Below, in pieces: positions 46,671 through 63,264 of a stretch of 64,000 bases of DNA. The DNA lies in assembly GCF_027497215.1 (NCBI RefSeq), contig NZ_CP114904.1, positions 3,246,001 to 3,310,000 of the forward strand. The letters run 5' to 3'. The translations under genes were made by a program, and so were the position numbers. Under the pieces are notes generated by a model. It was not told the origin of the DNA. It made no database searches and was given only the letters and a program-made list of their open reading frames with translations. The DNA is from Micromonospora sp. WMMD812. GTDB taxonomy: Bacteria; Actinomycetota; Actinomycetes; Mycobacteriales; Micromonosporaceae. Numbering within the stretch: the stretch's first letter is position 1; each line of letters opens with the position of its first letter.

Positions 46671-46698
46671 TAATCAGTTTTAGCATCGGGCGACACGC

Positions 46699-46737: not shown

Positions 46738-46750
46738 CTATGGTAACTGT

Positions 46751-47350: not shown

Positions 47351-48245
47351 CCGAAAGGTACCGGAGTGCGAGCGCGCTGCGCCGGGCCCTCGAGACGCGA
47401 CTCAGCCAGGAGGCAACCGACACCGGCACCGATCTGGCACGGCGACGCCGCCTCGTCGTCTTCGACCGCGTCGCCGCCCGTCTCTCGGCCGACCCTACCG
47501 GCGGCTGGATACTCAAAGGCGGTGCCGCTCTGGAGTTCCGCCTTCTCAGCAAGGCCCGCGCCACCAAAGACATGGACCTCGCCGCCTGCCCGGACGGCGG
47601 TCCAGGGCTAGACGGCCGGGAGGTACGAGACCTCCTCATCGACGCGCTCGCGCTCGATGAGGATGGTGATGGATTCCTCTTCCAGGTGTCTCCGCCCACT
47701 CCGTTGACGGCGGACACCGCCGGCCGCAGCGGCTGGCGCTTCTCCATCGAGAGTCGGCTAGCGGGGCGGACCTTTGCCACCGTACGCATCGACGTCGTTA
47801 TGCGTAGTGAGGAAATCTCTCGCCTCGAGCGGCTCTCCTTGCCCAACATGCTGGCATTCGCCGGAACGCCGCACAGGGAAATCCAAGCCGTGGACCGCCG
47901 CCAACACTTCGCGGAGAAGATCCACGCATTCACCCGAGACTACGGAGGCCGCCCCAACACCCGCGTCAAGGACCTCGTGGACCTGGTCCTGCTCATCGAG
48001 AGCGGATTGGCAGCGGACGCGGCCGTGGCGTCAACGCCGTACGGCACGTCTTCGCGGTACGGGCGACGCACCCGGTCCCGGACACGCTTCCCGACCCGCC
48101 TCCGGCCTGGGCGGACACCTACCCCGACATGGCCGAGGGCCTGACCGAAACCTCACCCCGGCTCGAAGCCGCGCTGGAACTCGCGCGCGGCTTCTGGGCC
48201 GCAGCACTCGCCAACGGCAACGCCGACCCGGAACAGAAAGATTAA
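47347..48245 (+). pseudogene. abiEii: AbiEii-like nucleotidyltransferase toxin with a frameshift near the C-terminus
   Basis: The N-terminal ~225 residues are intact: GGWILKGGAALEFRLLSKARATKDMDLAA holds the nucleotidyltransferase motif (KGG, DxD), and EKIHAFTRDYGGRPNTRVKDLVDLVLL the second conserved region. At about 48000-48030 one base is missing, and the proper C-terminus (VNAVRHVFAVRATHPVPDTL ... LELARGFWAAAL) continues in another frame to a stop at 48245, 2 nt before hsdM. The catalytic core is untouched, so a shortened toxin might still act. It could also be an assembly error. Confidence 0.8.
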
Positions 48246-48246
48246 G

Positions 48247-49737
48247 ATGGCATCCGCGAAGACGGGCACCACATCGCGAGCGCGGCTCGCGTCCATCATC
48301 AAGTCGGCCCGCGACACCATGCGCAAGGACGCCGGCCTCAACGGCGACCTCGACCGGCTCCCCCAACTATCCTGGCTGCTGTTCCTCAAGGCGTTCGACC
48401 AGCGTGTCGAGCAGGTGGGGCCGATGCTGAACCCCGACTACCGGCCCACCATCGAAAAGCCGTACCGCTGGCCGGACTGGGCGCCAGACCGCGACTTCAG
48501 CGGCGCCGAGTTGAAGACATTCGTCGACGGGGAACTGATCCCCTACCTCGCCGGGCTCAAGAACAGCGCCGGCAACGCCGATGATCCGCGCAACGTCCTG
48601 TCGACCATCTTCCAGGACGTCATTAACCGGATGCAGTCGGGAACTCTGCTGCGGGACCTGGTGAATCTGGTAGATCAGATCCACTTTGACTCGTCGGACG
48701 ACATCCACACCATGTCATTCGTATACGAGTCGATTCTCAAGGAGATGCGCGACGCGGCCGGCGACTCCGGCGAGTTCTACACCCCCCGCCCCGTGAACCG
48801 CTTCATGGTGCAACAGTCTTTCCTCAAACTGGGCGAGTCGATCCTAGACCCGGCCTGCGGCACGGGGGGCTTCCTGGTGCAGGCATACGAGGAACTTCGA
48901 CTACTGGTCGAGACAGACACCCAACGCAGGCAACTACAGGCAAATCTGCGAGGCATCGAGAAGAAGCCGCTGCCGTACCTGCTGGCCAGCATGAACATGC
49001 TGCTGCATGGCATCGAAGCACCGCGCCTCATTCGGGACAACGCGCTACTGCGGATGCGCGATGCAACGGCGGCGGACAGGGTCGATATGGTGCTGACCAA
49101 TCCGCCGTTCGGCGGTGAGGAGGAACGCTCGGTCGTCCAAAAGTTCCCGAAGGGCTACCAGACCCAGGAGACGTCGTGGCTATTCCTCCACGCGATCCTA
49201 GATCAATTGAAGCGAGACGGCCGCTGCGCAATAGTCCTACCGAATGGCAGCCTCTCTGCCGCCGGCGATAACAGCATCGGCGCCCGTATCAAGAAGAAGC
49301 TGATGAAGGAGTGCAACCTGCACACCATCGTTCGGCTACCGCAGGGCGTCTTCGCACCATACACCCTGATCCCATCGAACTTGCTGTTCTTCGAGAAGGG
49401 GACACCAACACAGGAGGTCTGGTTTTACGAAATCTCGCCACCGGACGGCCGACGCGGCTACACCAAGACCAAACCAATGCGGTTCGAGGAGTTCGAACCC
49501 TGTGTCCAATGGTGGGGTGGCGAAGAACGCCGAGGACGCGAGGAGGGACCCCACGCGTGGAAAATCTCCGCAGACGACGTCGAGAGGGCTGGCTACAATC
49601 TCGACTTGACTAATCCCCACGAGGAAGTTGCCTTGGCCCATCGCCCGCCAGACGAACTCCTGTCGGAGCTGGTTAAGACAGAGAACGAGATTCTCAGCCT
49701 ACTCGAAGAGGTCAAGAATAAGCTGAGGGATAGTTAA
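48247..49737 (+). CDS. hsdM: Type I restriction-modification, M subunit (N6-adenine methyltransferase)
   Basis: 496 residues. The helical N-terminal domain (to ~150) is followed by the SAM-binding motif I DPACGTGGF (201-209) and the catalytic motif IV NPPF (285-288). The C-terminal coiled coil (DELLSELVKTENEILSLLEEVKNKL) contacts HsdS. It is required for both methylation and restriction. It begins 2 nt after the AbiEii stop and shares TAATG with hsdS. Confidence 0.95.
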   Translation: MASAKTGTTSRARLASIIKSARDTMRKDAGLNGDLDRLPQLSWLLFLKAFDQRVEQVGPMLNPDYRPTIEKPYRWPDWAPDRDFSGAELKTFVDGELIPYLAGLKNSAGNADDPRNVLSTIFQDVINRMQSGTLLRDLVNLVDQIHFDSSDDIHTMSFVYESILKEMRDAAGDSGEFYTPRPVNRFMVQQSFLKLGESILDPACGTGGFLVQAYEELRLLVETDTQRRQLQANLRGIEKKPLPYLLASMNMLLHGIEAPRLIRDNALLRMRDATAADRVDMVLTNPPFGGEEERSVVQKFPKGYQTQETSWLFLHAILDQLKRDGRCAIVLPNGSLSAAGDNSIGARIKKKLMKECNLHTIVRLPQGVFAPYTLIPSNLLFFEKGTPTQEVWFYEISPPDGRRGYTKTKPMRFEEFEPCVQWWGGEERRGREEGPHAWKISADDVERAGYNLDLTNPHEEVALAHRPPDELLSELVKTENEILSLLEEVKNKLRDS

Positions 49738-50879
49738 TGCGAGAGATTGTCATGCGCCCACTCGGAACCGGATTAACCCTCTCACTAGACCAGGTCTCAG
49801 TGTCAGAGTGCAATGAATACAAGATTGCCGGCGTGCGAGGGTTCGGCAAGGGCGCTTTTGCTCGCGAAACGATCCGCGGGGATGAGACTTCCTATCGATT
49901 CTTGAATCGCCTACATTCTGGAAACATTATCCTGAGCAGACTAAAGGCATTCGAGGGCGCGATCGCACTTGTGCCCGATGAACTAGATGGCTTCTACGCC
50001 TCGGTCGAATTCCCAACCTTCGAGGTTAACGAAGATGCCGCAGATATTCGCTACATGAAGCACCTCTGCACTTGGCCGAAGTTTTGGCAGAAGCTCCAAG
50101 TAGAGTCGAAGGGAATTGGGGCCCGGAGGGAGCGCGTTAGCGCACAAAGCTTTCTCGCAATCGATGTCCCGCTACCCGACCTTAGGGAACAGCGCCGCAT
50201 CGCCGCGAAGCTCGACACGACAATACCATGCCTTACCCGGATTAACGCCTTACGCGAACGCTCCGTCGAAATCGTCGAGCAGTACGCAGACGCACTGCTG
50301 CGTCCTATAGAAGAGTGCGCCCCGCTCTCGGCCGCGCTGCATCCAAGCAGTGACTTTGTGGAGGTCCACCCTGATGGGATCTATCAAACCGCAGGGATCC
50401 TGAATCGCGGACGAGGCCTCTTCCGTCGCCCGGCAATCTCCGGTAGAGAAACCAAGTACACGCGATACAACCGTCTTCACACAGGACAGTTTGTCTACAG
50501 CAAGCTTTTCGGCTGGGAGGGTTCACTTGCGGTTGTGCCGTCCGACTTTGAAGGTGTCTACGTATCACACGAGTTCCCGACATTCAACATTGATCCCTCT
50601 GCCGCCGACGTAGAGTACATGGGCCATCTGGCTCGATGGCCCGGCCTGCATGATGCTTTGAGAGATAAGGGCACGGGAATGGGTTCCAGGCGGCAACGGG
50701 TCAATGTCGACCGGCTTTTGGCGACGGAGATACCACTCCCTCCCCTCCCTCAGCAACGACGTATCGCGCGGCAGCTCACCATGGTCCGGCGAGCGGTTGA
50801 GCTCGGTACCGAGCAGACCGCCCATCTAACCGCTCTACGTACCGCATCACTTAACGCGGCCTTCGCGGGAAATCTGTAG
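49737..50879 (+). CDS. hsdS: Type I restriction-modification, S (specificity) subunit
   Basis: 380 residues with two target-recognition domains (about 5-150 and 205-345), each followed by a conserved coiled-coil (LPDLREQRRIAAKLDTTIPCL and LPPLPQQRRIARQLTMVRRAVEL). The two domains are clearly related to each other (both contain a pattern like Y.R.NRLH.G..I.S.L, then EFPTF and a WP pair), so each half-site may be read by a similar fold. Codon use is AT-richer than the neighbours, as usual for hsdS. ATG 49737 overlaps the hsdM stop; an in-frame ATG five codons later is possible. Confidence 0.93.
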   Translation: MREIVMRPLGTGLTLSLDQVSVSECNEYKIAGVRGFGKGAFARETIRGDETSYRFLNRLHSGNIILSRLKAFEGAIALVPDELDGFYASVEFPTFEVNEDAADIRYMKHLCTWPKFWQKLQVESKGIGARRERVSAQSFLAIDVPLPDLREQRRIAAKLDTTIPCLTRINALRERSVEIVEQYADALLRPIEECAPLSAALHPSSDFVEVHPDGIYQTAGILNRGRGLFRRPAISGRETKYTRYNRLHTGQFVYSKLFGWEGSLAVVPSDFEGVYVSHEFPTFNIDPSAADVEYMGHLARWPGLHDALRDKGTGMGSRRQRVNVDRLLATEIPLPPLPQQRRIARQLTMVRRAVELGTEQTAHLTALRTASLNAAFAGNL

Positions 50880-50898
50880 CTCGATCGGAGCTGAACTG

Positions 50899-51579
50899 TC
50901 AGCCGTGCTCCACCCGACGCCAATCCTGGTCCGTGACAACCAGATGATCCAGGAACTTGAGTCCGACCGCCTCCGCCCCTGCTGCCAGGCGGGCTGTGGC
51001 TTGGCGGTCGGACTCGCTGGGGTCCACCCGCCCGGTCGGGTGGTTGTGGCTTACCCCGAACGCCGTGCCTCCGGTCGCTAGCACCAACGCCAGAACGTCT
51101 CGGACCGGAAGAGGGAGCGATCGGCCGCGCCTTCGCTGAACACCGCCGTCCGCAGCACGTGCCGACGCTGTTCGCAGACGACGACCACCACCCGTTCGTG
51201 TCGCAGTCCCGCAAGCAGTGGTCGGCTTCAGCGACCAGATCCGCGGAGCCACGGATTCGTGGCCGGCCCGACAGCTCCGCCGGTCGCACCCGACGACTGA
51301 GCTGGAACGCCGCTGCTACTCGGGCAGCCTTCGCTGGGCCGATGCCTGCCAAACCCGCCGGGATCTCGTGCGGGTCGGCCCGCGATAGCTCGTACAGTCC
51401 GCCGTGCCGGGCGATGAGCTGGCTGGCAAGCTCCACGGCGTCGCAGCCATCGGTACCGGAGCCCAGCAGCAGTGCCACAGTTCCCGATCGGACAGGGTCT
51501 CGGAGCCTCGGTTGAGGAGTCGTTCCCGTGGCCGGTCGTCAACCGGGACATCGGCGATGGGCATGGCGTGTTTCCTCAA
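50899..51579 (-). pseudogene. radC: RadC/JAB-domain (UPF0758) gene with several frameshifts
   Basis: Fragments of one RadC protein lie in successive frames: MPIADVPVDDRPRERLLNRG (about 51470-51560), then ALLLGSGTDGCDAVELASQLIARHGGLYELS (from ~51470), then RHERVVVVVCEQRRHVLRTAVFSEGAADRSLF (about 51110-51200), and VRDVLALVLATGGTAFGVSHNHPTGRVDPSESD to the stop. The JAMM metal motif HNHPTG-x5-SESD is still readable. At least three frame changes are needed, so this copy is most likely dead. The start overlaps the DUF262 stop (ATGA). Confidence 0.8.
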
Positions 51580-53294
51580 TCCACCGAGTCGAGGTCGATC
51601 GGTTCATCGGTTAGGGGATCCACATCAAGGTCCGAATCAATGATTTCGTCTCCTACCAGCGGCTCGGCACTGCTGGTGGCGACGTTCGTCGGCTCCGTCG
51701 CCAACCCGATGAGCTGCAACAGCCGCCGGTGTAGCGTCTCGGACCTCACGCGCAGAAACGTGTCGTAGTCGTCCCGTAGTGCCGCCTGGTACGCCTCCTC
51801 GTTCACCAGACAAGTCCGCAGCCGCTGCCGGAGCGCCCCTTCTCCCTCGATGTCAGCCAGATCCCGCAGGTATCGCGACGGCGGGCGGTCGGACACCCAG
51901 ATGTTGCTGTTCGATGTCAGCATGACCAGGTTGCCGCAGACGTTGGCCCGAGCGCCGCTGACTCCGCGTGCTCGCAGGAAGGCCCGGGGAAAGAAGTGGT
52001 GGAACTCCTTGTCATTCTGCCAGGACAGTGCCCTGCCCACGTCGATCCGCTGCCCCGTGAGCAGGTCTAATGGATCTGCGTACGCAAGGATTAAGGCGAG
52101 CAGCTTGCTTGGAGCGTTCCGCTTGGAGAACGCGCTGTGCCGCCACAGGGCGCTGCGGGGCAGCGCCGCAACCGTGTCGACCTCACCGGTTTCTCCCCGG
52201 GCGAACGCGGCTATCGCCTGCGCGTCCTGTGTCATCTGGGCCTCGCTCCAGCCCTTGAAGTACTCGCCGCTGGCGGTCAGCCAGAACCAGCGGCGCAACG
52301 CGTCATACTGCGCGGATGAGGGCTTCGGCAGCTGCCGGAACACCTCTACAAGCACTGCGAACTGGTTGTAATAGGGCAGCGCATCGGCATGCGGAGTGCG
52401 AATCTGAGTACTGAGGAAATCCACCGCTCGCTCAGCCGCCTTCCCCGCTGCCTTTACAGCCTCCCGGAGACGCGGCTTATCCAGCTCCCGCAGGCGGTTG
52501 ATGTCCTGCCTGGAGAACCCGAAGCCGGCTGCGACCGCGATCGTGCGAAGCATGGTCATGGTGTCCACGCGACCGTAATGCTTCGCGTCTAGGACCTGAA
52601 GTAGCGACTCGATTTCGTCCTTGAGATCAAAGTCCGGGCTCCAAGTACTCGCCCGTGCCACATCGACGATGTTCATCGTAGTGCCGGTGCTGTTGATCCG
52701 AACGAAGACCCGCGCCGACTCCTCTGCCGACATGTGGTCCAACGTGACTACGGGGACCAGATAGTTGGCGAACTGCTCGTACAGTCCCGTGGCACGTTCT
52801 CGCAGGTCGGCGGAAAGCTCGGCGACCTGCCCGAAGAGAAGACTCGCCGAGCTCACCGCCCGCATGGGCACGAGATGCGCTGCCATCGCCGTATCCGGAG
52901 TGCGATGGAAGAACCGCTCCTTCTGCAGGTCATAGATGATGTCCCAAGGACCCGTGCCTCCATGCAGAGCACCGAGCACGCTCGCCAGCCTCTGCTGGCC
53001 GTCCAGAATGTATCTCACCGCTCGGCCCGGCCGCGGAGGTTCTACAGCGAGGCCAGCGACAGTGTGCTCGCTCGCGAGCTGCTCGGTGGTTTCCCACAGC
53101 AGTAGGCTGCCAATGGGATAGTTGCGCAGGACCGAGTCGAGGAGTTCGAGGACCTGGTGTGGTCCCCACACGAACGCCCGCTGGTACTTCGGCAGCACGA
53201 TCTCGCCCGTCAGCACGCGGTCTGCGAGCCGAATCATCGGCACAATGGTCGGTTCTGGACCCGCCGGCTGTCGCCGTCGGCCTGCTGCGGTCAC
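51576..53294 (-). CDS. DUF262 (GmrSD-like) defence protein
   Basis: 572 residues. The N-terminal DUF262 has VLPKYQRAFVWGPHQVLELLDSVL and the DGQQR motif (YILDGQQRLASVLGAL), a ParB/Srx-like nucleotide-hydrolysing site. A helical middle follows, and near residue 450 an HNH-like KEFHHFFPRAFLRARG occurs, similar to the DUF1524 nuclease region of GmrSD type IV restriction enzymes. It is intact and next to a type I RM locus. The partner radC overlaps its stop but is broken. DUF262 proteins are known anti-phage factors; the target here is unknown. Confidence 0.85.
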   Translation of the reverse strand: MTAAGRRRQPAGPEPTIVPMIRLADRVLTGEIVLPKYQRAFVWGPHQVLELLDSVLRNYPIGSLLLWETTEQLASEHTVAGLAVEPPRPGRAVRYILDGQQRLASVLGALHGGTGPWDIIYDLQKERFFHRTPDTAMAAHLVPMRAVSSASLLFGQVAELSADLRERATGLYEQFANYLVPVVTLDHMSAEESARVFVRINSTGTTMNIVDVARASTWSPDFDLKDEIESLLQVLDAKHYGRVDTMTMLRTIAVAAGFGFSRQDINRLRELDKPRLREAVKAAGKAAERAVDFLSTQIRTPHADALPYYNQFAVLVEVFRQLPKPSSAQYDALRRWFWLTASGEYFKGWSEAQMTQDAQAIAAFARGETGEVDTVAALPRSALWRHSAFSKRNAPSKLLALILAYADPLDLLTGQRIDVGRALSWQNDKEFHHFFPRAFLRARGVSGARANVCGNLVMLTSNSNIWVSDRPPSRYLRDLADIEGEGALRQRLRTCLVNEEAYQAALRDDYDTFLRVRSETLHRRLLQLIGLATEPTNVATSSAEPLVGDEIIDSDLDVDPLTDEPIDLDSVD

Positions 53295-53385: not shown

Positions 53386-54854
53386 TCACGCCCCTTTGGA
53401 GTCGCGTCGTCGGGGTACGACCGATGCGGTGGCTTCGGCGGCAGCGTGTGAGAGTTCGGGGAGGACCTCGCCGTAGAACTTGGCGGTGAAGTGTGGGCTG
53501 GAGTGTCGGAGCCGGCTGGAGATGACCTTCATTTGGACGCCGGCGGCGAGGCCCATGGTGGCGGCGCCGTGGCGGAGGTCGTGGAGCCGGATGGGTGGTA
53601 GCCCGGCTTGCGTGGCGAGGTGGTGGAAGTGGTCGGTGACGTCGGCAGGGTGGAGCCGCCCACCGGTGGGTGTGGTGAACACGAGCCCGGTGGTGGTCCA
53701 AGCGGCACCGGCGGCGAGGCGTTCGCGGTGTTGCCGGGTGCGGTGGGCGCGCAGCACCGCGACGGTTTCGGCGTCGAGAGCGACCGCGGCCTCACTATCG
53801 GTGGTTTTGGGGGTGTCGATGGCGGTGGCCCAGCCGTGTTGGACGAGTTGCCAGCGGACGGTGAGGGTGTGAGCGTCGAGGTCGAGGTCGTCCCAGTGCA
53901 GACCGCAGGCCTCGCCTCGGCGCAGGCCGGTGAAGGTGATGAGGTGGTAGAGGGCGTAGAGCCGGTCGTTGGCGTCGTGGGTGTGGTCGAGGAATCTGCC
54001 GGTGTGCTCGGGGGTCCAGATCATGACGGGGCTGGGGGTCTTGCCGGTGTCGCGCCAGGTGCGGATGCGTTGGTCGGTCCAGATGGTGGGCTTGGGTGGT
54101 CGGGCGGTGGGTAGTTCGACCATGAGGGCGGGGTTGGTGTCGATGTAGCGGTGGCGGCGCATCGCGTCGTTGAGGGCCTTGCGCAGGGTGGCGTAGATGA
54201 CGTGCAGGGTTCTGGGGCCGGCGATCCGCTGGTTCTTGACCTGGTCGCGTTTAGTGGGGTCGCGACTGGCGCGCAGGGTGGCGATGGTGGTGTTGCGTTC
54301 GGCGATGGCGTCGTACATGGCGTCGATGTGGCCGGGGCGGAGCCGGTCGATCCGCAGATGCCCGAGGTGCGGGATGAGGTACAGCCGGATGTGCCCTTCG
54401 TAGGAGCGCAGGGTGCCGGTCTTGATGTTTTGCGTCCGGCGAGCCAGTCGGTCAGGTACGCCTGCATAGTGGGCAGTTCGGTCGGGGTGATGTCCAGGTG
54501 CAGCGCCCGCCGAACCTGCTCCGGGGTGGGGATGGGCGCGCCGGTCTTGACGGCGGTTTCGATCAGGTCACCGGTCTTGACGGTGGTGTGCGGGTCGGTG
54601 GGGTCGGGGACGGCGAGCGCGGCCCGGATGCGGTCCAGGACGGCGTCGGCGTCGGCTTGGGTGGCGTAGGGGCCGTGGCGGAGCGGGCGGCGGGTGCCGC
54701 CGGCGCGGGCGGGTACTTCGATTTGCCAGTGCCAGTGGCCGTGGGTGCGGGACCAGCCGCCGCCGGGCCGGCGAAGCTGGGGACAGGAGCGTCCCAGTCG
54801 CCGGCCCGTGACGCTGCCGCGGCAGCCGCACCGTTTGAAGGTGGATCCCTTCAC
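53386..54854 (-). pseudogene. int: Tyrosine recombinase (integrase) interrupted by one frameshift
   Basis: The N-terminal part from ATG 54854 (MKGSTFKRCGCRG, then HWQIEVPARAGGTRRPL and the SAM-like LPTMQAYLTDWLAGRK) is in one frame. At about 54430, in an A-run, the frame changes and continues NIKTGTLRSYEGHIRLYLIPHLGHLRI through the catalytic domain: TGLRRGEACGLHWDDLDL (first Arg), HDLRHGAATMGLAAG, RLRHSS and the tyrosine in KFYGEVLPEL. All catalytic residues exist; a single missing A would explain the break. No tRNA-like att core is visible after its stop (53295-53385). Confidence 0.8.
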
Positions 54855-55261
54855 TCATCGTCTCCTGGATGCTCCGTATGGTGCCGCCAGCGGTGCCGGG
54901 TGGAATCCGCTGGTGGCGGGGTCACCGCATCCACGCTCACCTTTGCGCCGGCATCAAGTCGTCGGTGGTCGTCGGTCGAAGCGGGGTCCCCGACCAGCAG
55001 GAGCTGAAGAAGGCCGGCAACCGGGACGATGATGCGGCTGCCGGCCCGAATCAGCGGTACGGGGAACTGGTCGGTGGCGGCGAGCCGGTACGCCTGGGAT
55101 CGGCTGATCCCGAGCACGGAGGCGGTGGTGGCGAGGGTGGTGGTGACGCCGAGGGCACGGATGCGCTCGATCGTCCACACCTCCCCGACGCCGGGCGCGG
55201 TGGTGTTGCTGTCGGTCGTGGTGCGGGTTGTCTGGTCAGCGTGATTCGTGGGGCTGTTCAT
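54851..55261 (-). CDS. xis: Excisionase / MerR-like helix-turn-helix DNA-binding protein
   Basis: 136 residues from ATG 55261. After a Thr/Asn-rich N-terminus the HTH reads TTLATTASVLGISRSQAYRLAATDQFPVPLIRAGSRIIVPVAGLLQLL, the standard excisionase-family DNA-binding domain. The tail is His/Asp-rich. It overlaps the integrase start by 4 nt, the usual xis-int order in actinomycete integrative elements. Confidence 0.85.
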   Translation of the reverse strand: MNSPTNHADQTTRTTTDSNTTAPGVGEVWTIERIRALGVTTTLATTASVLGISRSQAYRLAATDQFPVPLIRAGSRIIVPVAGLLQLLLVGDPASTDDHRRLDAGAKVSVDAVTPPPADSTRHRWRHHTEHPGDDE

Positions 55262-56155
55262 GATCAGGGTTCTCCTGGTTCTGAGATGGATGGCTGTGCG
55301 GTAGGTGCGGGGTAGCCCTGTCGGGGTCGACCGGCGCGGGGGTGGCTGCTCCGCCACCGTTGCGCCGCTTCGGTGACAGAGGCGGTGGCGCCGGGTTGGT
55401 CGGCACGGCCGGGCTCGCGATCAGCTCAGGCGGTGCCGACGACTCGACCTTGAGGGTCTTAAGGAGTTCGGATACTCGGGTGTTGGACACGGTGTGACCG
55501 GCAGCGCGCAGGGCTTCGGCGAGTGCAGCCCGGGTCAGTGCCTGCCCGTCCGCCGCGAGCCGGTCCCGGACCTCGCGCGCCGCCGGCAGCAGCTCGGCCA
55601 CATCGCCGGACGGCTGCGCGGACCGTCCCCGGTCCGCTCGCTGCCAGTTCCGTCCGCCATGTCGGCGACGAGCATCCGGTGAGCGGACGGTCCGGGTCCG
55701 GACCGCCGCTCCCCCGCCGTGACAGCGGACCGGGTCGCCTCGTCCAGTCCGCTGTCCGGAACAGTCCGCCCGGCCTCATCCCGTCGGCCGTCCCCAACCG
55801 CCCAGGCGGTGTTGGCGGGCGTGGCGGTGCTGGTCCGACCGAGGGCGATCTTGACCATGACAAGGAACCCGAGCGCGGGTACCGCGGCGGCGACCCAGCC
55901 GACGATCGAGGGTTCGGCCTCGACGACCTGCGCCGCCAGGGACAGGGTGACCGCGCACGCCAGCACCGTGGCCGGGAAGACGGTGGAGGTGTGGGCGCGT
56001 TTGCGGCGGCGCAGTTCCAAACCGGAGGCGATGGACATCAGCTCCAGGACGATCGCGTCGGCCCAGGCCAGCCAGCCGGGTTGGCCGTGCGCGGCGGCCA
56101 CGTTGTGCACGTGGGTGAAACTGGCCGCCCCCGCCGCGCCGCCGATGGCCAGCAT
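55236..56155 (-). pseudogene. DUF2637 (Spd-like) membrane/DNA-binding protein with a frameshift
   Basis: The first part (MLAIGGAAGAASFTHVHNVAAAHGQPGWLAWADAIVLELMSIASGLELRRRKR, then ATVLACAVTLSLAAQVVEAEPSIVGWVAAAVPALGFLVMVKIALG) is the four-helix DUF2637 domain of plasmid-spread proteins. At about 55610 the frame changes, and the C-terminal winged helix follows (AELLPAAREVRDRLAADGQALTRAALAEALRAAGHTVSNTRVSELLKTLK) to the stop at 55236. Upstream of ATG 56155 the frame (TSPRGNRVEGAVQVVI) also looks coding but has no good start, so the N-terminus may be damaged too. Confidence 0.72.
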
Positions 56156-56536
56156 GATGACAACCTGAACGGCGCCCTCGACGCGATTGCCGCGCGGACT
56201 GGTGTCCGAGTCAGGGATCGATGCTGTCGTGGCCCATCACCTCCCCGACCCCGGACAGGGGTTCCGGTCCGTCCGTCAGTCGCAGGAGGCGGGACCGGAT
56301 GGCGGACCGACCCGGCGTCGGACAACAGTCGGGACGGGGACCGGACACCGGTCGCGGACCGCCCAACGCGGACGCCAGACCGAGAACTGGTCCGGCGCTG
56401 TGGGAGCGGACGACTGGTGCTCTCACGGATCTGTCAGCGCCGACCGCGCTGCTCACGACAGATTCGTGACAGACGCCGGCCGTTGCTGTCCGCTCCGCAG
56501 CGGAGGTACTGTCCACGGCCGTTGTGCCGTCGCCGA
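56156..56536. other. Spacer between the DUF2637 and replication-relaxation genes
   Basis: About 380 bp. Its first ~50 bp probably encode the lost N-terminus of the DUF2637 protein. The rest shows no frame with coding bias. It could hold the replication origin of the element, but I see no iterons. Confidence 0.35.
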
Positions 56537-57424
56537 TCACGCGGCCTCACCCGCCCGGCTGGAGACGTCAACGGCATACCCGGCCAGATCGGCCAGCCGC
56601 AGCCGCTGCCCTTCCCGGCCGGCCATGGCCCACACCGCCTCTGCCGGGCCGAGGCCCGCCGTCGCGGCGTGGTCGCGGGCCCCGGTAGCGACCGGCACCG
56701 CCAGCGGCACGTCAGCCAGCACGCGGCGTAGGTTGCGCTCGCGGGCGGCCGAGTGCAGCCAGAACAGCACCGGCCACGCCCGCTCGATCGTGCCGAACAG
56801 CTCCTGATAGCCGTCCACCTTGCCGGCCAGGATCGACAACTGCTCGGCGCCGGTGTCGTACTCGACGAAGAACGGCACCTCGACATCGTTCTCGATCCAC
56901 CGGCCGTAGCCGTCCGGGCGGACACGCGGCTGATACGCCCGCACCAGCCCCGGATCCTGCCGCCGGGTGAACGTCCCGGCGCGCTGGCACACCGCCTCCG
57001 GCAGCCACTCCACCAGGCCGGTGCCCGGATGGGTGCGGGCGTGCCCGGCCAGGTCGGTGAAGAAGCCGTTCACTCCGAGGCGGTGGGTGAGGCTGCGGGT
57101 CGAGGTCCAGCGCCGCCGCTCCACCCGGGCGTGTTCCCGCCGCGGCGGGCGTTCGTCGCGACTCGCGGCGACGACTTCGGCGCCGAGCTGGTCGATGACG
57201 TAGTGGTACGGGTACGAGCCGCCGTCGGCCCGCTGCGGTCGGAACCGGGCCACCAACCGCAACCGGTACAGGGTCCGCAACCGCCGCTGGCAGAAATCCA
57301 ACGACGGGAACAGGGTGTTCGCGAGCTGGAACGACGTCAATACGCCGTGGTCGTACAACCAGCCCAGCAGCACACGGTCACGGCCGGTCAGCTGGGACTG
57401 GACCCGAAGGACCGGATCATCCAC
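56537..57424 (-). CDS. Replication-relaxation family protein
   Basis: 295 residues. The N-terminal winged helix (VQSQLTGRDRVLLGWLYDHGVLTSFQLANTLFPSLDFCQRRLRTLYRLRLVARF) is followed by LGVNGFFTDLAGHARTHPGTGLVEWLPE, PDGYGRWIENDVEVPFFVEYDTGAEQLSILAGKVDGYQELFG and WPVLFWLHSAARERNLRRVL. This is the family of plasmid replication-relaxation proteins found in actinomycete plasmids and AICEs. It is intact. It supports an integrated plasmid-like element with int and xis downstream. Confidence 0.88.
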   Translation of the reverse strand: MDDPVLRVQSQLTGRDRVLLGWLYDHGVLTSFQLANTLFPSLDFCQRRLRTLYRLRLVARFRPQRADGGSYPYHYVIDQLGAEVVAASRDERPPRREHARVERRRWTSTRSLTHRLGVNGFFTDLAGHARTHPGTGLVEWLPEAVCQRAGTFTRRQDPGLVRAYQPRVRPDGYGRWIENDVEVPFFVEYDTGAEQLSILAGKVDGYQELFGTIERAWPVLFWLHSAARERNLRRVLADVPLAVPVATGARDHAATAGLGPAEAVWAMAGREGQRLRLADLAGYAVDVSSRAGEAA

Positions 57425-57911: not shown

Positions 57912-58423
57912 ATGTCCGCCCCTGCGCCGCGTCCGTTGCTGTTCCTTGATGTGGACGGCACCCTCATCCCGTTCGGCACACCCGCGGCGGCTGGGCCGGG
58001 CATGTCACATGGCCGCCCCGTGGCACCGGCTCTACCGGCCGATGCCCATCCCCTGCTGCACAAGGTCGATCCGGGACACGGCCGCCGGCTGGAGGTTCTG
58101 CCGTGTGATCTGGTGTGGGCGACGACCTGGATGAGCGACGCGAGCGATGTGCTCGCGCCGCTGCTGGGGTTGCCGCCTCTGCCCGTCGTGGACTGGCCCG
58201 ACTCTGACGAGGTGGGGCCCTGCACTGGAAGACCCGTGGGCTGGTCGAGTGGGCGCAGGGACGGCCCTTCGTCTGGGTCGACGACGAGATCTCCCACGTC
58301 GATCAGCAGTGGGTGTCGGCTCATCACCCAAGTCCGGCCCTGCTGCATCGGGTCGATTCCCGTCGCGGGTTGACCGAGCACGACTTCACTGTCATCGCGA
58401 GCTGGCTCAGGTGGGCGCGGTAG
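57912..58423 (+). pseudogene. HAD-like hydrolase gene with one frameshift
   Basis: From ATG 57912: LLFLDVDGTLIPFGTPAAAG (motif I DVDGT), HKVDPGHGRRLEVLPCDLVWATTWMSDASDVLAPLLGLPPLPVVDWPDSDE. At about 58211-58219, in a G-run, one base is missing. The other frame continues LHWKTRGLVEWAQGRPFVWVDDEISHVDQQWVSAHH (motif IV, VDDE) and HDFTVIASWLRWAR to a stop at 58423. Both halves are well conserved, so the lesion is recent or an assembly error. A short relic of the same family is at 32280. Confidence 0.8.
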
Positions 58424-58537: not shown

Positions 58538-59107
58538 CTACGGGGGCGGAACGTTCGGTACAAGGTCGTCGTCGCGTCCGGTCTGGGGTAGCCCAGCGGC
58601 AGTCGCGATGGCCTCGACGGCGTCGACCAGGGTGATGGTCTCCGGTAGGACGAGTTCGTCGGGCCAGCCCAGGACGTCATGGGCGGTGTACCAGCCGCTC
58701 ATGTGCTCGGCGGTGAACTCACTGACCTGCGGGCGCGTGAGGTGCCGGCACAGGGTCTCGGCCAGGGACACGTCGAGATAGCAGAGCAGCGACCGGCCGC
58801 GGTGGCCGTCCCGCAGGGAGGTCAGCATGTTGCGGTATCGGCTGGTGTGCATGATGCCCTCCAACACCACGTGGTAGCCGTGGTCCAGCGCGAACCGAAC
58901 GGTCTCCCCGATCAATGCCGGTGCCGCGCCGCCGGGCTTGTCCCGCTCCCGCAGCACGATGCGGCGCAGGTAGTCCTGCTCGACCAGGGCACAGCCCCGG
59001 CCGTGCCGGCGCCGCAGCTCCCGGGCGATGCTGCTCTTTCCCGAGCCGGAGTTGCCCCGGATGCAGACGAGGATCGTGTTCGGGCTGCCGGTGGGTTCAG
59101 CGAGCAC
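58538..59107 (-). CDS. P-loop kinase / AAA-type ATPase
   Basis: 189 residues. Walker A GNSGSGKSS at 18-26, then ELRRRHGRGCALVEQDYLRRIVLRERDKPG, VLEGIMHTSRYRNML and SLLCYLDVSLAETLCRHLTRP. The layout is that of small zeta-toxin/uridine-kinase-like kinases. GTG 59107 follows the pentapeptide-repeat gene with a 15-bp gap, so it is the last gene of the RiPP operon. A role in phosphorylation of the peptide or in self-resistance is possible but not shown. Confidence 0.85.
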   Translation of the reverse strand: MLAEPTGSPNTILVCIRGNSGSGKSSIARELRRRHGRGCALVEQDYLRRIVLRERDKPGGAAPALIGETVRFALDHGYHVVLEGIMHTSRYRNMLTSLRDGHRGRSLLCYLDVSLAETLCRHLTRPQVSEFTAEHMSGWYTAHDVLGWPDELVLPETITLVDAVEAIATAAGLPQTGRDDDLVPNVPPP

Positions 59108-59122
59108 GATGCCTCCTCGGCT

Positions 59123-59785
59123 TCAGTCGTTGCGGACGGTGAGGTCGAGGGCGGCGACGGTCAGCTGGGTGAGGTCAGGAAGTTGGTCCTCGCCGAGGGT
59201 GACGCCGCGCAGGTTGTCCAGCGGCGTCTTGAGGCCCTGGAGGCGGCTGCCCCGCAGGTCGGCGCCGTCGAGGTGGCAGGAGTCCAGTTCCAGGCCGGCA
59301 AGGTCACACGACCGCAGCGCGATACGCGGTAGTCGGCAGGAAGACCACGCGCCGTTGGTGAGAGTGCAGTCGGTGAACGCGACCGAGCCGGCCGCGGTGA
59401 CGCGGTGGAGGGTGGCGTAGTCGAAGCGGCAGCTGTCGAACAGGACGTCCTTGAGGCGTACGTCGGTGAGTCTGGTGCCGGTGAACCGGGAGCCGGTGAT
59501 CGCGCATCGTTCGATGGTGATGCCGGTCAGGGTCGCTCCGGAGAAGTCGGTGCGGGTGAAGTCGCAGCCGTAGAGGCTGCCCGCCTCCCAGGTGCTCTCG
59601 CTCAGGTCCACGCCGGTGATCAGACTGCTGCGGATGCTGACATCCTCAAGGTGCAAGTTGTGCCACGCTGCGCCATTGACGAGCGCCTCGGTGAGGCCGT
59701 CGGCGAGGTTCGTCGTGGTGTCGAGGTCTTCCGGTTCGAGGTCCGGCAGCAGGATCTTCACGTCGCCGATTGTGGTGGTGCGCAT
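59123..59785 (-). CDS. Pentapeptide-repeat protein
   Basis: 220 residues. From about residue 45 the sequence repeats five-residue units of the A(D/N)Lxx type: SLITGVDLSESTWEAGSLYGCDFTRTDFSGATLTGITIE, CRFDYATLHRV, CDLAGLELDSCHLDGADLRGSRLQGL. These fold as a right-handed quadrilateral beta helix, in some families a DNA mimic that protects gyrase from toxins. It lies 61 bp after the RiPP precursor gene in the same direction. An immunity function is plausible but unproven. Confidence 0.88.
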   Translation of the reverse strand: MRTTTIGDVKILLPDLEPEDLDTTTNLADGLTEALVNGAAWHNLHLEDVSIRSSLITGVDLSESTWEAGSLYGCDFTRTDFSGATLTGITIERCAITGSRFTGTRLTDVRLKDVLFDSCRFDYATLHRVTAAGSVAFTDCTLTNGAWSSCRLPRIALRSCDLAGLELDSCHLDGADLRGSRLQGLKTPLDNLRGVTLGEDQLPDLTQLTVAALDLTVRND

Positions 59786-59846
59786 ATGTCCTCAACCTGT
59801 GCGGGCGCGGGGTGGGCACGCCACCCCGGGCGTCCCGTGGTGGGGG

Positions 59847-60029
59847 CTACTTCTTCTTGTTCCAGTTGTCCCAGCCGGGCCGACTGTCGAATTTACTCTT
59901 GTTGTCCCAGGTGGGGCGGTTGTCGAACTTCGCCGCGTCGATCGACGCTACCGACCGCTCGGGGTCGACGCCGAGGCGAGCGAGTTGCTCGGGTGCGGCG
60001 TTGACGAGGACCGCGAGAGCGTTGGTCAT
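59847..60029 (-). CDS. amcA: RiPP precursor peptide with multiple cyclophane motifs (AmcA type)
   Basis: 60 residues. Leader: MTNALAVLVNAAPEQLARLG followed by VDPERSVASIDAAK. Core from F35: F35-D-N, W41-D-N, F47-D-S and W53-D-N, with aromatic residues exactly six apart, then W56-N-K and a Lys tail. The two 12-residue units (FDNRPTWDNKSK and FDSRPGWDNWNK) are tandem copies. Such aromatic-x-x motifs (Asp-Asn, Asp-Ser or Asn-Lys after the ring) are what SPASM maturases crosslink to three-residue cyclophanes. The ATG (60029) overlaps the maturase stop (ATGA), and its AAGGAGGAG ribosome site is encoded by the last maturase codons, so translation is coupled. Confidence 0.92.
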   Translation of the reverse strand: MTNALAVLVNAAPEQLARLGVDPERSVASIDAAKFDNRPTWDNKSKFDSRPGWDNWNKKK

Positions 60030-61162
60030 GGTGCTCCTCCTTGAGGGGTGAGGTGGTCCGCGGCGGCGCGGACGAGGGCCTGTCGGGTGGTCCGGCAGTA
60101 GGTCGTCTCTCGGGCGGTGAACGTCGCGTGCTCGAAGTAGCGGTTGCCGGCCTGGGCGCCACGGCAGAAGTCGTAGAAGGCGCACTGGTCGGCGCAGTCG
60201 TTGAGGGCCGTGACGAACTCGGCGACGTAGCCTAGATCGCCAGCGCGGGCGAGCATGGCGGTGATGGGCTGATGGAGGACGTTGCCGGCGATGAAGTCGC
60301 CGTATCGCGGCTCGGTGATGCCGAGCAGCTCCGGTGACAGCAGCACCACCTGCCCATCCCAAGAGACCGTCGGGATCGGCTCGTACGGGGCGTGGTCGAC
60401 GTATCCGGCGCGGGTGGTGGCGAGGTAGTCGGCCAGCCGGTCCACGTCGCGGATCCGCAGCGGGTTGCCGCCGACGCGCCGTGCGATGAGGTGCTTCCAG
60501 AAGCGGTACGCGGCGTCCTCCGACACCGGTGCCCGGTCGGCGCCCTCCTGCTCTTCGATGTTGAAGCCCACCGACTCGCAGCCGGGTAGGCCGGTGAAGA
60601 AGTCGACGAGGGCTTCCGCGTGGTCGATGGTTTCCGGGGTGACCACACAGATCACCGAGTACCTCAGCCCTGCGTCGGCCAGGGTCTGCATGCCGCGCAG
60701 GGTCCGGGCGTCCGTCGGCTTGCCGGCCCGGTCGAGGCGGTTCCGGTTCAACGCGCCCGGTCCGTCGATGCTGACTCCGACCTCGTACCCATAGGCGGTG
60801 AGCAGCTCGCACCACTGTCGGTTGATCAGCGTCGCGTTCGTCTGGATCTCGTGACGCACCATGCCCACGCGCCGGAGCTCCTCGAACGGGGCCAGCAGCT
60901 CCCGGAACAGCCTTATCGGTGTGGCGGTGGGTTCGCCACCGTGCCACACGACACTCACGTGATGACCGCTGTTCTGCTGGACGATCGACTTCGCGCAGGC
61001 CTGCGCGACCGCGCCGCTCATCAGGCGGAAGGATCTTCGGTCGGGCAGGTAGCAGTAGGTGCAGTCGAGGTTGCAGAAGCTCGTCGGCTGCACGACCAGG
61101 GTGTGGAAGCTGCCGGCGATCGCCGGCTGGCCGGTGGCGTTGATGACGCCGATGCCGTTCAC
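60026..61162 (-). CDS. amcB: Radical SAM/SPASM cyclophane-forming peptide maturase (AmcB type)
   Basis: 378 residues. The radical SAM cluster motif CNLDCTYC (Cys 30, 34, 37) is in QPTSFCNLDCTYCYLP, followed by VVWHGGEPTATP (SAM binding), HEIQTNATLINRQWCELL and VGVSIDGPGALNRNRLDRAGK. The C-terminal SPASM domain has a Cys cluster (NDCADQCAFYDFCRG and a later YCRTTRQ) for auxiliary Fe-S clusters. It probably couples the beta carbon of Asp/Asn to the ring of Trp/Phe in the precursor. GTG 61162 overlaps the stop of the upstream gene. Gene order maturase-precursor is inverted compared with most RiPP clusters. Confidence 0.93.
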   Translation of the reverse strand: MNGIGVINATGQPAIAGSFHTLVVQPTSFCNLDCTYCYLPDRRSFRLMSGAVAQACAKSIVQQNSGHHVSVVWHGGEPTATPIRLFRELLAPFEELRRVGMVRHEIQTNATLINRQWCELLTAYGYEVGVSIDGPGALNRNRLDRAGKPTDARTLRGMQTLADAGLRYSVICVVTPETIDHAEALVDFFTGLPGCESVGFNIEEQEGADRAPVSEDAAYRFWKHLIARRVGGNPLRIRDVDRLADYLATTRAGYVDHAPYEPIPTVSWDGQVVLLSPELLGITEPRYGDFIAGNVLHQPITAMLARAGDLGYVAEFVTALNDCADQCAFYDFCRGAQAGNRYFEHATFTARETTYCRTTRQALVRAAADHLTPQGGAP

Positions 61163-61506
61163 GAGGAGGCCTCCTCAATGCTGGCCGCCCCGGTGGTGCT
61201 GACGCGGTAGGCGTGGGTGTGGCGGGCCGGCCAGCCGAGGAACCGGTCGAACATGTCGGCGGCGCTGCCCGTGACGCTCGGGTTGAGCCGGTGCAGGTCG
61301 TCGATCGCGTCGTGCAGGCAGCTGGCCAGGTAGAGGAACAGGCTCACCGGCACTTCTCGGTACTCGGCCAGGAGCGCGAGCTTCGCCGCGCCGCAGGGCC
61401 ACGGCTGCCCGCACCGGCGGCACAGCCACAGCGGGCGCATCGGCAGATGCTCCACCTCGGCTGGCGCGAGCCGGTTGACCGCGAGACGGCGCTGTTGCCC
61501 AGTCAT
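61159..61506 (-). CDS. Small Cys-motif protein of the RiPP operon
   Basis: 115 residues from ATG 61506. LWLCRRCGQPWPCGAAKLALLAEYREVPVSLFLYLASCLHDAI shows CxxC-x5-C, a possible zinc or Fe-S site. The rest is helical (AADMFDRFLGWPARHTHAYRV). Homologs accompany maturase genes of this kind, which suggests a role as accessory or recognition protein, but function is not known. It overlaps the maturase start (GTGA) and the 54-residue gene upstream (ATGA). Confidence 0.82.
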   Translation of the reverse strand: MTGQQRRLAVNRLAPAEVEHLPMRPLWLCRRCGQPWPCGAAKLALLAEYREVPVSLFLYLASCLHDAIDDLHRLNPSVTGSAADMFDRFLGWPARHTHAYRVSTTGAASIEEASS

Positions 61507-61667
61507 CGGCGACCGCCCTCGCGGGTCTGCTGCGCGAACAGCCGACGCCACACGAAGGTGAGCAGCGGCGGATCAGCGGGCCACACCTGCCCCGCCGAGG
61601 CCATCCACCTGCTCTCGGGGTGCCGGGACTGGCCGGACATGGCGTTACGCGAGACGTACAACGTCAT
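61503..61667 (-). CDS. 54-residue protein, first gene of the RiPP operon
   Basis: ATG 61667 gives MTLYVSRNAMSGQSRHPESR, then WMASAGQVWPADPPLLTFVW and RRLFAQQTREGGRR; a GTG at 61679 in the same frame is possible. The stop overlaps the next start (ATGA). GC at third positions is high throughout. No motif is recognised. A Trp/Arg-rich short protein at the head of the operon could be a regulator, a second peptide, or a maturation partner. It is too short for default gene callers. Confidence 0.65.
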   Translation of the reverse strand: MTLYVSRNAMSGQSRHPESRWMASAGQVWPADPPLLTFVWRRLFAQQTREGGRR

Positions 61668-62037
61668 GCCGTCACCCACGCCAGGGACGATGAGCGGCGG
61701 GCTCGTCGGGGGAATGGCGAGCCCGCCGCCGCATCACGGCGGCTGGGAGCAGACCGCCGATCACCCACCCGCGCAGCCCTCGTGGCGGTACGCAGGCGGG
61801 GAAGGCGCCGAGACAGTTCGCTCCCGGACGGGCCGAGCCAGCGGCCCAAGCCGTGGTGTGGTGCGCCGCTCATCGATCCCTCCATCTGCAGCTCCCTGTC
61901 AGTCATCCCTGACACCGGCATCGACACGCGCCGGTGATCCGGGGTGAACTGAACGTAGGGGCGGTCCGTCCGGAGGACCGGGAAAATCCGTACCGGGTCC
62001 GGCGGCCTTCAGCGGGCAGGGTGATGGTGTGCGAGGG
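61668..62037. promoter_or_regulatory. Divergent promoter region of the RiPP operon and its XRE regulator
   Basis: 370 bp between divergent genes. A palindrome CGGTCC-N7-GGACCG (61962-61980) lies 58 nt before the regulator start and is a candidate operator. I see no convincing -10/-35 set for the operon. One minus-strand frame (61664-61927) ends ATGA-coupled to the first gene, but its Arg/Ser composition looks out of frame, so I do not call it. Confidence 0.4.
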
Positions 62038-63264
62038 ATGACGGACGACATGACGATCGGCCAGCGCGTCGCCTTCTACCGGCGTCGGCGAGGGCTTTCC
62101 CAGGAGGTGCTCGCCGGTCTGGTCGGGAAGACGCAGGAGTGGTTACGCAAGGTCGAGACGAACCGGGCCGACCTGGACCGGCTGTCGGTCATCCGCGCGA
62201 TCGCCAAGGCCCTCGACGTGTCCCTCGGCGACCTGATCGGTGCACCTAGCCTGTTCGAGTGGTCGGACGACTCCGGGCGCGAGACGATCCCGGCCTTGCG
62301 GGCCGCGCTTCACGACTATCGTCACCTCGCGCCAGCGCTGGCCAGCACGGGGGACGTCGAGGCTCCCGCCCTGCACGAAATCGAGAACGACGTCGCCGAG
62401 ATCTGGACCGCCTACCAGCACTCGAGATACGGCACCCTCGCCCGCCGGCTGCCCTACCTCATCCACGACTGCCTCACCGCCACGGAGGCGTACGACGGAG
62501 ACGACGGCCAGCGCGCGCACGCGATGACCGCTTACGCCCACCAGCTCGCCGCGTTGTTCCTCACCAAGCTCGGCGAAGGTGACCTCGCGTGGACCGCCGC
62601 CAGCCGAGGTCTGGCCGCCGCCAACGCCAGCCACGACCACGTCGTCATCGGCTCACTCAGCCGCTCCGCCGCGCACTCGCTGGTCTCCATCGGTGAGTAC
62701 GCCCAAGCCCGTGGCCTCGCCGCCACAGCGGCGCAGTTCCTGGAACCACGGCTCGCCAAACCCACTCCGCAGCTGCTGTCGGTATACGGCAGCCTGCACC
62801 TCGTCTGCGCGCTGGCCGCCGCCCGGGACGACAATCGTGCCTCCGCCGACACTCACATCACGGAGGCCGATGCGGCTGCACAGCGGCTCGGTACCGATGG
62901 CAACCATGTGTGGACCGCGTTCGGGCCGACCAACGTGTCGATCCACAAGACGACCGTGGCGATGGAACTCGGCGACGTGCAACGCGCCATCGCCATCGGC
63001 GCCCCACTCGACACCAGCACCGTGCCCGTCGAGCGGCAGGTTCGGCACGCCATCGAAACCGCACGAGCCCTTGCCCGGTGGAACCGCATCGACGACGCGC
63101 TCAACGCGCTCCTGGACGCCGAGGTCATCGGCCCCGACCAGGTGCGTTACCACCAGCTCTCCCGCGACCTCGTCCGGGACATCCTCACCCGCCCCCGGCC
63201 ACCCCGACTGGCCGTCGAACTCAGCGACCGCATGGGCGTCCGGTCAGGAGGGCCACGCTGGTAG
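62038..63264 (+). CDS. XRE-family regulator with TPR-like C-terminal domain
   Basis: 408 residues from ATG 62038. The HTH is at about 5-60 (MTIGQRVAFYRRRRGLSQEVLAGLVGKTQEWLRKVETNRADLDRLSVIRAIAKALDVSLGDLIG). The rest is a TPR-type superhelix (YAHQLAALFLTKLGEGDLAWTAASRGLAAANASHD and ETARALARWNRIDDALNALLDAEV). Such one-component regulators often sense a peptide or small signal. It is divergent from the RiPP operon, so it is the likely pathway regulator. Confidence 0.9.
   Translation: MTDDMTIGQRVAFYRRRRGLSQEVLAGLVGKTQEWLRKVETNRADLDRLSVIRAIAKALDVSLGDLIGAPSLFEWSDDSGRETIPALRAALHDYRHLAPALASTGDVEAPALHEIENDVAEIWTAYQHSRYGTLARRLPYLIHDCLTATEAYDGDDGQRAHAMTAYAHQLAALFLTKLGEGDLAWTAASRGLAAANASHDHVVIGSLSRSAAHSLVSIGEYAQARGLAATAAQFLEPRLAKPTPQLLSVYGSLHLVCALAAARDDNRASADTHITEADAAAQRLGTDGNHVWTAFGPTNVSIHKTTVAMELGDVQRAIAIGAPLDTSTVPVERQVRHAIETARALARWNRIDDALNALLDAEVIGPDQVRYHQLSRDLVRDILTRPRPPRLAVELSDRMGVRSGGPRW

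What the first reader, a model, noticed from the sequence alone, without database searches (positions are those of the whole stretch)
58538..62037. Multi-cyclophane RiPP operon with six coupled genes
Directly visible: a 60-residue precursor with aromatic residues F35, W41, F47, W53 six apart, each in an aromatic-Asp-Asn/Ser motif, plus W56-N57-K58. Two 12-residue units are tandem copies. A radical SAM/SPASM enzyme (CX3CX2C) overlaps it. Established: SPASM maturases of the XYE/GRR/Amc kind form three-residue Trp/Phe cyclophanes. Inference: up to five crosslinks, i.e. five adjacent rings. The operon composition (54-aa protein, Cys protein, pentapeptide repeat, kinase) goes beyond the minimal maturase-precursor pair.
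Basis: partly seen in the sequence, partly recalled or inferred. Interest (0 to 1): 0.88.

Follow-up and report, generated by a model that had tools for sequence, protein, structure and literature searches.

The report
Cyclophane peptide operon with Qnr-like guardian
A soil actinomycete carries genes for a small peptide that an enzyme probably stitches into several rigid rings, nearly always paired with a DNA-shaped protein resembling those that shield DNA gyrase from poisons, which suggests the peptide attacks gyrase.

Summary
The precursor (59850-60029, -) and maturase (60029-61162, -) belong to the known AmcA/AmcB multi-cyclophane RiPP family; both pass curated NCBIfam cut-offs. Five aromatic-X-acceptor sites are invariant or nearly so in 40 precursors, while the middle residue varies at two of them. 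Ring number cannot be tested here.

Best reading: a cyclophane peptide with microcin-B17-like logic, the repeat protein protecting topoisomerase. Toxicity and target are inferred. The 54-aa and Cys proteins look like a separate regulator cassette; NCBIfam's AmcA label on the 54-aa protein is doubtful. A 2025 paper says triceptide bioactivities are not yet elucidated.

The parts
58538..59107 (-). P-loop kinase of the PRK06762 group (189 aa); facultative partner: a match at 15 of the 27 orphan repeat-gene loci (two of these damaged), and absent or truncated at several complete loci
   Evidence: NF005252 333.6 bits, cut-off 258; AAA_33; presence
59123..59785 (-). Pentapeptide-repeat protein (220 aa), proposed self-protection (immunity) protein of topoisomerase-protector type
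59847..60029 (-). AmcA precursor (60 aa); core F35-D-N37, W41-D-N43, F47-D-S49, W53-D-N55, W56-N-K58
   Evidence: NF041721 65.5 bits, cut-off 40; positions; conservation in 40 sequences
60026..61162 (-). AmcB radical SAM cyclophane-forming maturase (378 aa), CX3CX2C at C30-C37, four further invariant Cys at 323-356
   Evidence: NF041718 553.2 bits, cut-off 425; PF04055; Cys columns in 26 proteins
61159..61506 (-). 115-aa Cys protein, part of an XRE-linked cassette; not specific to amc
   Evidence: No family hit; found with the 54-aa gene in loci without amc
61503..61667 (-). 54-aa protein; NCBIfam calls it AmcA (NF041725), but it lies near a window-type AmcB in only 22 of 62 places and has no repeated Phe/Trp-x-Asn/Ser motif (only one Tyr-x-Ser and one Trp-x-Arg)
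   Evidence: NF041725 92.8 bits, cut-off 40; sequence
62029..63264 (+). Divergent XRE (HTH_31) regulator, 411 aa, weak to NsdA-family TPR-like regulators; probable controller of the operon (inferred)
   Evidence: PF13560; NF053720 44.6 bits, below cut-off 75

Best explanation
The locus is an accessory AMC-type triceptide operon. AmcB, a radical SAM enzyme, links each aromatic residue of the AmcA core to the beta-carbon of the residue two places on (F35-N37, W41-N43, F47-S49, W53-N55 and possibly W56-K58). After leader removal by a host protease this gives a rigid, cationic, multi-ring peptide that harms cells. The pentapeptide-repeat protein downstream is the dedicated self-protection protein: a negatively charged, DNA-shaped, Qnr-type rod that acts on DNA gyrase or topoisomerase IV and displaces or excludes the peptide, as McbG does for microcin B17. 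Lineages often lose the peptide genes but keep the protector, because neighbours still make the peptide. Shown by calls: family membership, site conservation, linkage, repeated loss of amcA/amcB with retention and purifying selection of the repeat gene, and its predicted fold. Inferred: ring number, processing, toxicity, gyrase as target, the protector's action.
Confidence: 0.52

Rival explanations
1. The peptide is toxic and the repeat protein is its immunity protein, but the target is not a topoisomerase; the repeat rod binds the peptide itself or shields another nucleic-acid enzyme.
For: Linkage, debris and selection evidence says immunity but not which target. The core is cationic (+3) and the rod acidic (-13), so direct capture is conceivable.
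Against: The best natural structural and profile matches are gyrase inhibitors and protectors; the three repeat proteins of antibiotic clusters that I read about (McbG, AlbG, speirobactin's) go with gyrase poisons.
Confidence: 0.17
2. An addiction (toxin-antitoxin-like) module of a mobile element: the cyclophane peptide stays inside the cell and poisons gyrase on loss of the element, the repeat protein being the antidote.
For: No exporter- or protease-like gene among the six. Integrase, DUF2637 and Replic_Relax genes lie just downstream, and the same Replic_Relax family recurs near other amc or repeat loci. Orphan antidotes are known in such systems (recalled).
Against: A stable beta-solenoid is not an obviously labile antidote; several complete loci with the conserved XRE and DUF218 flank (such as L003, L010, L015) show no Replic_Relax match in the stretch held; other mobile genes were not searched for there.
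Confidence: 0.13
3. The peptide is a signal or structural metabolite with no toxicity, and the repeat protein is a partner or regulator with a separate function kept for its own sake.
For: An XRE regulator sits beside many loci. The core-type AMC peptide of the same genome has a core identical in the eight loci read, and an AmcB over the cut-off is in 258 of 300 relatives, which looks like housekeeping.
Against: No repeat gene was found beside the core type; the accessory type is patchy and repeatedly lost, unlike a housekeeping signal.
Confidence: 0.13
4. Both the 60-aa and the 54-aa proteins are substrates (two precursors), as NCBIfam's labels say.
For: NF041725 'phane_AmcA_5' 92.8 bits over a cut-off of 40; the 54-aa gene is in the operon; it has one Tyr-x-Ser and one Trp-x-Arg.
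Against: 22 of 62 homologs are near a window-type AmcB; six amc-free 54-aa loci read in 12-kb stretches show no AmcB-like match; tblastn did not find it at the AMC loci L026-L033 of other genera; it has no repeated Phe/Trp-x-Asn/Ser motif.
Confidence: 0.05

Closest known systems
AmcA/AmcB, multiple cyclophane-containing RiPP (NCBIfam NF041721 / NF041718)
   Same: Precursor and maturase pass both curated cut-offs; many named relatives bear that name in NCBI.
   Different: The operon adds a pentapeptide-repeat gene that was not found at the own genome's other AMC locus or at seven further core-type loci.
Triceptides of XncB, OscB and MscB (XYE, GRR, FXS)
   Same: Aromatic residue at i and Asn, Asp, Ser or Arg at i+2 (passages of PMC11002830).
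   Different: Maturase is below the cut-offs of GrrM (250.6 vs 310), FxsB (71.7 vs 370) and XyeB (67 vs 450 bits).
Microcin B17 with McbG immunity
   Same: Peptide made on ribosomes and modified, with a pentapeptide-repeat immunity protein in the operon (passages of PMC10886550 and PMC7897471).
   Different: Azole rings there, predicted carbon-carbon cyclophanes here; export machinery there, none recognised here; gyrase is the established target there only.
Albicidin/AlbG and speirobactin with its repeat protein
   Same: Repeat protein as self-resistance gene for a gyrase poison (passages).
   Different: Those compounds are made without ribosomes: a nonribosomal peptide (speirobactin) and a hybrid polyketide-peptide (albicidin).
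EfsQnr, MfpA, QnrB1
   Different: About 21% identity to EfsQnr; curated Qnr and MfpA cut-offs not met.

Membership tests
AMC multi-cyclophane RiPP (AmcA/AmcB) | Maturase over NF041718 cut-off | tested here: met
   553.2 bits, cut-off 425
AMC multi-cyclophane RiPP (AmcA/AmcB) | Precursor over an AmcA model cut-off | tested here: met
   NF041721 65.5 bits, cut-off 40
AMC multi-cyclophane RiPP (AmcA/AmcB) | Radical SAM CX3CX2C and C-terminal Cys for an auxiliary cluster | tested here: met
   C30/34/37 and C323/327/333/356 invariant in 26 of 26; that the last four hold a cluster is inferred
AMC multi-cyclophane RiPP (AmcA/AmcB) | Several three-residue crosslinks in the product | not testable with these tools
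   Sites conserved; needs mass spectrometry and NMR
Topoisomerase-protecting pentapeptide-repeat proteins (Qnr, MfpA, AlbG, McbG) | Right-handed quadrilateral beta-solenoid of pentapeptide repeats | tested here: met
Topoisomerase-protecting pentapeptide-repeat proteins (Qnr, MfpA, AlbG, McbG) | C-terminal helix used for head-to-head dimers | tested here: inconclusive
   Helix 199-212 predicted; dimer not modelled
Topoisomerase-protecting pentapeptide-repeat proteins (Qnr, MfpA, AlbG, McbG) | Acidic, DNA-like surface | tested here: inconclusive
   Net charge -13; 48 homologs median -12; surface not computed
Qnr or MfpA proper (NCBIfam equivalogs) | Score over curated cut-off | tested here: not met
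   Qnr 39.5 vs 240, MfpA 35.8 vs 360 bits
Topoisomerase-protecting pentapeptide-repeat proteins (Qnr, MfpA, AlbG, McbG) | Binding to gyrase and protection from a poison | not testable with these tools
   Needs biochemistry
Self-immunity gene | Linked to the toxin genes, not missing from intact toxin loci, often kept after toxin loss | tested here: met
   Beside 34 of 36 AmcB and 42 of 42 AmcA matches (some of these remnants); 27 of 51 full-length copies without AmcB. The two exceptions are a partial AmcB (G150) and a 46%-identical AmcB (G295). Genomic pattern only; that the peptide is a toxin was not tested

The most novel reading that the evidence does not exclude
Accessory AMC triceptides are gyrase (or topoisomerase IV) poisons with a dedicated Qnr-type pentapeptide-repeat immunity protein. 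This would be a first target for this class of triceptides, and the orphan copies a natural reservoir of selected topoisomerase protectors in actinomycetes.
Probability: 0.42. Interest if true: 0.85.

Novelty: new variant of a known kind. Interest (0 to 1): 0.6.

Why it matters
A 2025 paper states that the bioactivities of triceptides have not yet been elucidated (PMC12257519, passage). The near-constant partner found here gives this branch a concrete, cheap test: does modified AmcA poison gyrase, and does the repeat protein relieve it? If so, it adds a new chemical class of gyrase-directed peptide and explains patchy, selected Qnr-like genes in these actinomycetes as leftover immunity. No held paper contains both 'pentapeptide repeat' and 'cyclophane'. 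The listings, with related terms, showed no title or abstract start making the link. Subscription papers on triceptides were not readable here, so an earlier mention cannot be excluded.

Tried and rejected
Rejected: the 54-aa protein as a second precursor, despite its NCBIfam label (22 of 62 places near a window-type AmcB). Rejected: kinase, Cys protein and 54-aa protein as core parts; tblastn did not find them at the more distant AMC loci L026-L033. Considered: plasmid spread. AmcB found only relatives of 30-33% identity annotated GrrM in plasmids (6 records), and the repeat protein only relatives of 22-31% (7 records). ARAGORN found no tRNA in the window, so no tRNA attachment site could be proposed. 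Literature: one search showed 0 occurrences of 'AmcB' in the 30 papers it listed (of 235), and one search listed 21 papers on triceptide terms, of which PMC11002830 and PMC12257519 were opened for passages. The primary triceptide papers (Nguyen 2020, Sugiyama 2022, Phan 2022) were seen only as references. (orphan immunity) was seen as a listing only.

Limits: the 300 genomes are one family, drawn evenly from a larger group; that it is Micromonosporaceae is inferred from the organism names. The listing was capped, so core-type counts are not given beyond its tally. The coupled group is 21 of the 24 copies with AmcB nearby; the three beside a damaged AmcB (G147, G065, G286) were left out. dN/dS medians use the 20 coupled and 26 orphan copies with nearest-neighbour dS over 0.05; single values run from 0.15 to 0.51. 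Orphans were found by searching with the repeat gene, so the fair comparison is the two-way one. 16 further repeat-protein matches under 60% identity also have no window-type AmcB nearby and may be other repeat proteins. In one search shuffled labels needed 15.9 changes on average, and 47 of 500 shuffles were as low as the real 13, so orphan status is scattered rather than clustered. With the single sequence instead of the profile, MfpA of M. smegmatis, not EfsQnr, is the top PDB match.
Full report
WHAT IS THERE. Six genes on the minus strand, 58538-61667, run from a 54-aa protein through a Cys protein, a radical SAM enzyme, a 60-aa precursor and a pentapeptide-repeat protein to a P-loop kinase. 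The first three junctions overlap by four bases; the last two gaps are 61 and 15 bases. A divergent XRE regulator starts at 62029. The precursor's aromatic residues are F35, W41, F47, W53 and W56. Its two 12-mers agree at 8 of 12 positions, and none of 200,000 shuffles of the core gave four F/W-x-N/S sites six apart; five aromatic-x-[NSDRK] sites of any spacing are not rare in shuffles (14,286 of 200,000).

WHAT IT IS. NCBIfam names both core genes: AmcA (NF041721, 65.5 bits, cut-off 40) and AmcB (NF041718, 553.2 bits, cut-off 425). Of 54 homologs of the precursor in a protein search, many of the named ones are called 'multiple cyclophane-containing RiPP AmcA' by NCBI. In an alignment of 40 precursors (the window's and 39 homologs of at least 59 aa), F35, N37, W41, N43, F47 and W53 are 40 of 40, and S49, N55, W56 and K58 are 39 of 40. 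The middle residues of the second and fifth motif vary (D42: 25 of 40; N57: 35 of 40). That fits crosslinks between i and i+2. Known enzymes of the wider class join Trp or Phe to Asn, Asp, Arg or Ser in that geometry (passages of PMC11002830); a Lys acceptor is known from darobactin (abstract start of PMC9055067, listing). Five rings per peptide is therefore a sound but untested inference. More distant precursors keep the plan with other letters: Streptomyces and Kitasatospora loci read WGNQPTWDN... or FDNRPTWDN..., several ending in WNKKK-like tails.

TWO KINDS OF AMC LOCUS IN ONE FAMILY. In 300 genomes of the family, 258 have an AmcB over the cut-off (its listing is capped). The window's own genome has a second copy at C1:4466304-4467371 (515 bits, locus L110). 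It and seven more such loci read here are 39-42% identical to the window's enzyme. Their precursors all end in AWNHFENIPTFYNWNNRPR. I call this the core type. No repeat gene was found beside it (0 of 8 loci: L102, L104-L110; 1.5 kb on each side for seven, 18 kb in all for L110). The window's type is rarer: 36 of 300 at E <= 1e-90.

THE PENTAPEPTIDE-REPEAT GENE IS THE CONSTANT PARTNER. Among 46 AmcB loci from named genomes, 34 have a match to it: Micromonospora and relatives (L001-L023, L038, L046), Virgisporangium, Catellatospora, Streptomyces, Streptantibioticus and Kitasatospora, down to about 49% AmcB identity. The 12 without it are seven distant AmcB relatives of other phyla (L034-L037, L040, L042, L043), a 29% relative in Streptomyces canus (L045) and the broken or partial loci L025, L039, L041, L044. 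In the 300-genome draw it lies within 1.5 kb of 34 of 36 window-type AmcB and within 1 kb of 42 of 42 AmcA matches in 41 genomes, some of these matches being remnants. The two exceptions are G150, whose AmcB match covers residues 3-306 only, and G295, whose AmcB is 46% identical. The kinase, Cys protein and 54-aa protein are not constant.

ORPHAN COPIES. The converse does not hold. Of 51 full-length repeat genes with at least 60% identity, 27 have no window-type AmcB within 1.5 kb. Eleven of these 27 carry remnants of amcA or amcB just upstream, of different extent: G185 keeps AmcB 1-45 and AmcA 36-60; G253 keeps pieces of AmcB 300-377 and a stop-containing AmcA; G245 keeps AmcA 21-60; G213 AmcA 49-60; G162 AmcA 38-60; G281 AmcA 34-60; G181 AmcA 3-60; G259 AmcB 1-69; G298 AmcB 339-377 and a frameshifted AmcA; G175 AmcA 13-60; G138 (C22) AmcB 359-376 with a whole AmcA. 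Two more, G264 and one of the G276 copies, are weak. The repeat gene in all 27 is an open frame without internal stops. Nearest-neighbour dN/dS has a median of 0.254 in orphans (26 with dS over 0.05) and 0.275 in coupled copies (20). On a maximum-likelihood tree of 48 copies the two states need 13 changes, at least 8 forced by well-supported branches. The repeat gene does decay in places: 8 matches of at least 60% identity are fragments, and at G153 only residues 189-219 remain. In this draw the precursor was never seen without the repeat gene, while the repeat gene is often without the maturase; that two-way asymmetry is what immunity genes show. The window's own genome has an orphan copy at C1:1785710-1786369 besides the coupled one.

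MOST LIKELY MECHANISM. AmcB installs several strained rings in AmcA; a host protease frees the core; the peptide poisons a type II topoisomerase; the repeat protein spares the maker. Lineages that drop production keep the shield because neighbours still produce. Ring number, processing, export and target are inferred. The lack of a recognised exporter keeps an addiction-module reading alive.

CORRECTIONS TO THE FINDING AND TO A DATABASE LABEL. NCBIfam calls the 54-aa protein AmcA (NF041725). It has one Tyr-x-Ser and one Trp-x-Arg but no repeated Phe/Trp-x-Asn/Ser motif, was not found by tblastn at the AMC loci L026-L033, and lies within 2 kb of a window-type AmcB in only 22 of 62 places. Six amc-free places read in 12-kb stretches (L114-L119) show it with the Cys protein and no AmcB-like match, in two of them (L116, L119) with a relative of the XRE regulator nearby. 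It is more likely part of a regulator cassette; that it is a substrate is not excluded.

SETTING. Downstream of the operon lie a Replic_Relax gene (56537-57424), a DUF2637 gene and a tyrosine integrase (53386-54318), then a GmrSD gene and a type I restriction set with an AbiEii-type gene. A Replic_Relax relative recurs near other amc or repeat loci, so mobile elements probably carry the module; no attachment site was found.

NOVELTY. The AMC chemistry is known. The pairing with a selected, often orphaned Qnr-like protector was not found in held papers, but the subscription papers on triceptides could not be read. I therefore call it a new variant of a known kind.

Noticed in passing
L110:7278-8411 (-) and just downstream (own genome C1:4466304-4467371): A second, core-type AMC locus. 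Its precursor end AWNHFENIPTFYNWNNRPR is identical in the eight core-type loci read, and an AmcB over the cut-off is in 258 of 300 family genomes. It sits beside genes that look like purM and purF (recognised by eye, no family search). This suggests a housekeeping role.
   Followed up: partly
window 61503-61667: NCBIfam NF041725 labels this 54-aa protein AmcA, probably wrongly; 40 of 62 homologous places have no window-type AmcB within 2 kb.
   Followed up: yes
L112:5711-6370 (-) (own genome C1:1785710-1786369): Orphan repeat gene with kinase, Replic_Relax, 54-aa and Cys genes but no amcA or amcB match.
   Followed up: yes
window 44205-53294: Defence-type genes next to the operon: type I restriction set, AbiEii-type nucleotidyltransferase, GmrSD endonuclease.
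   Followed up: partly
window 53386-57424: Tyrosine integrase, DUF2637 and Replic_Relax genes, as in actinomycete integrative elements (recalled); no tRNA in the window.
   Followed up: partly
window 57918-58370: Open frame with a weak HAD-domain match (PF18143, below cut-off), perhaps a degraded gene.
   Followed up: no
L120 (G153): A locus where AmcB (first 16 residues) and the repeat gene (residues 189-219) are both reduced to remnants while XRE, DUF218, 54-aa and Cys genes stay.
   Followed up: no
window 59786-59846: The gap between amcA and the repeat gene holds a GC-rich possible inverted repeat (by eye), perhaps an expression control.
   Followed up: no
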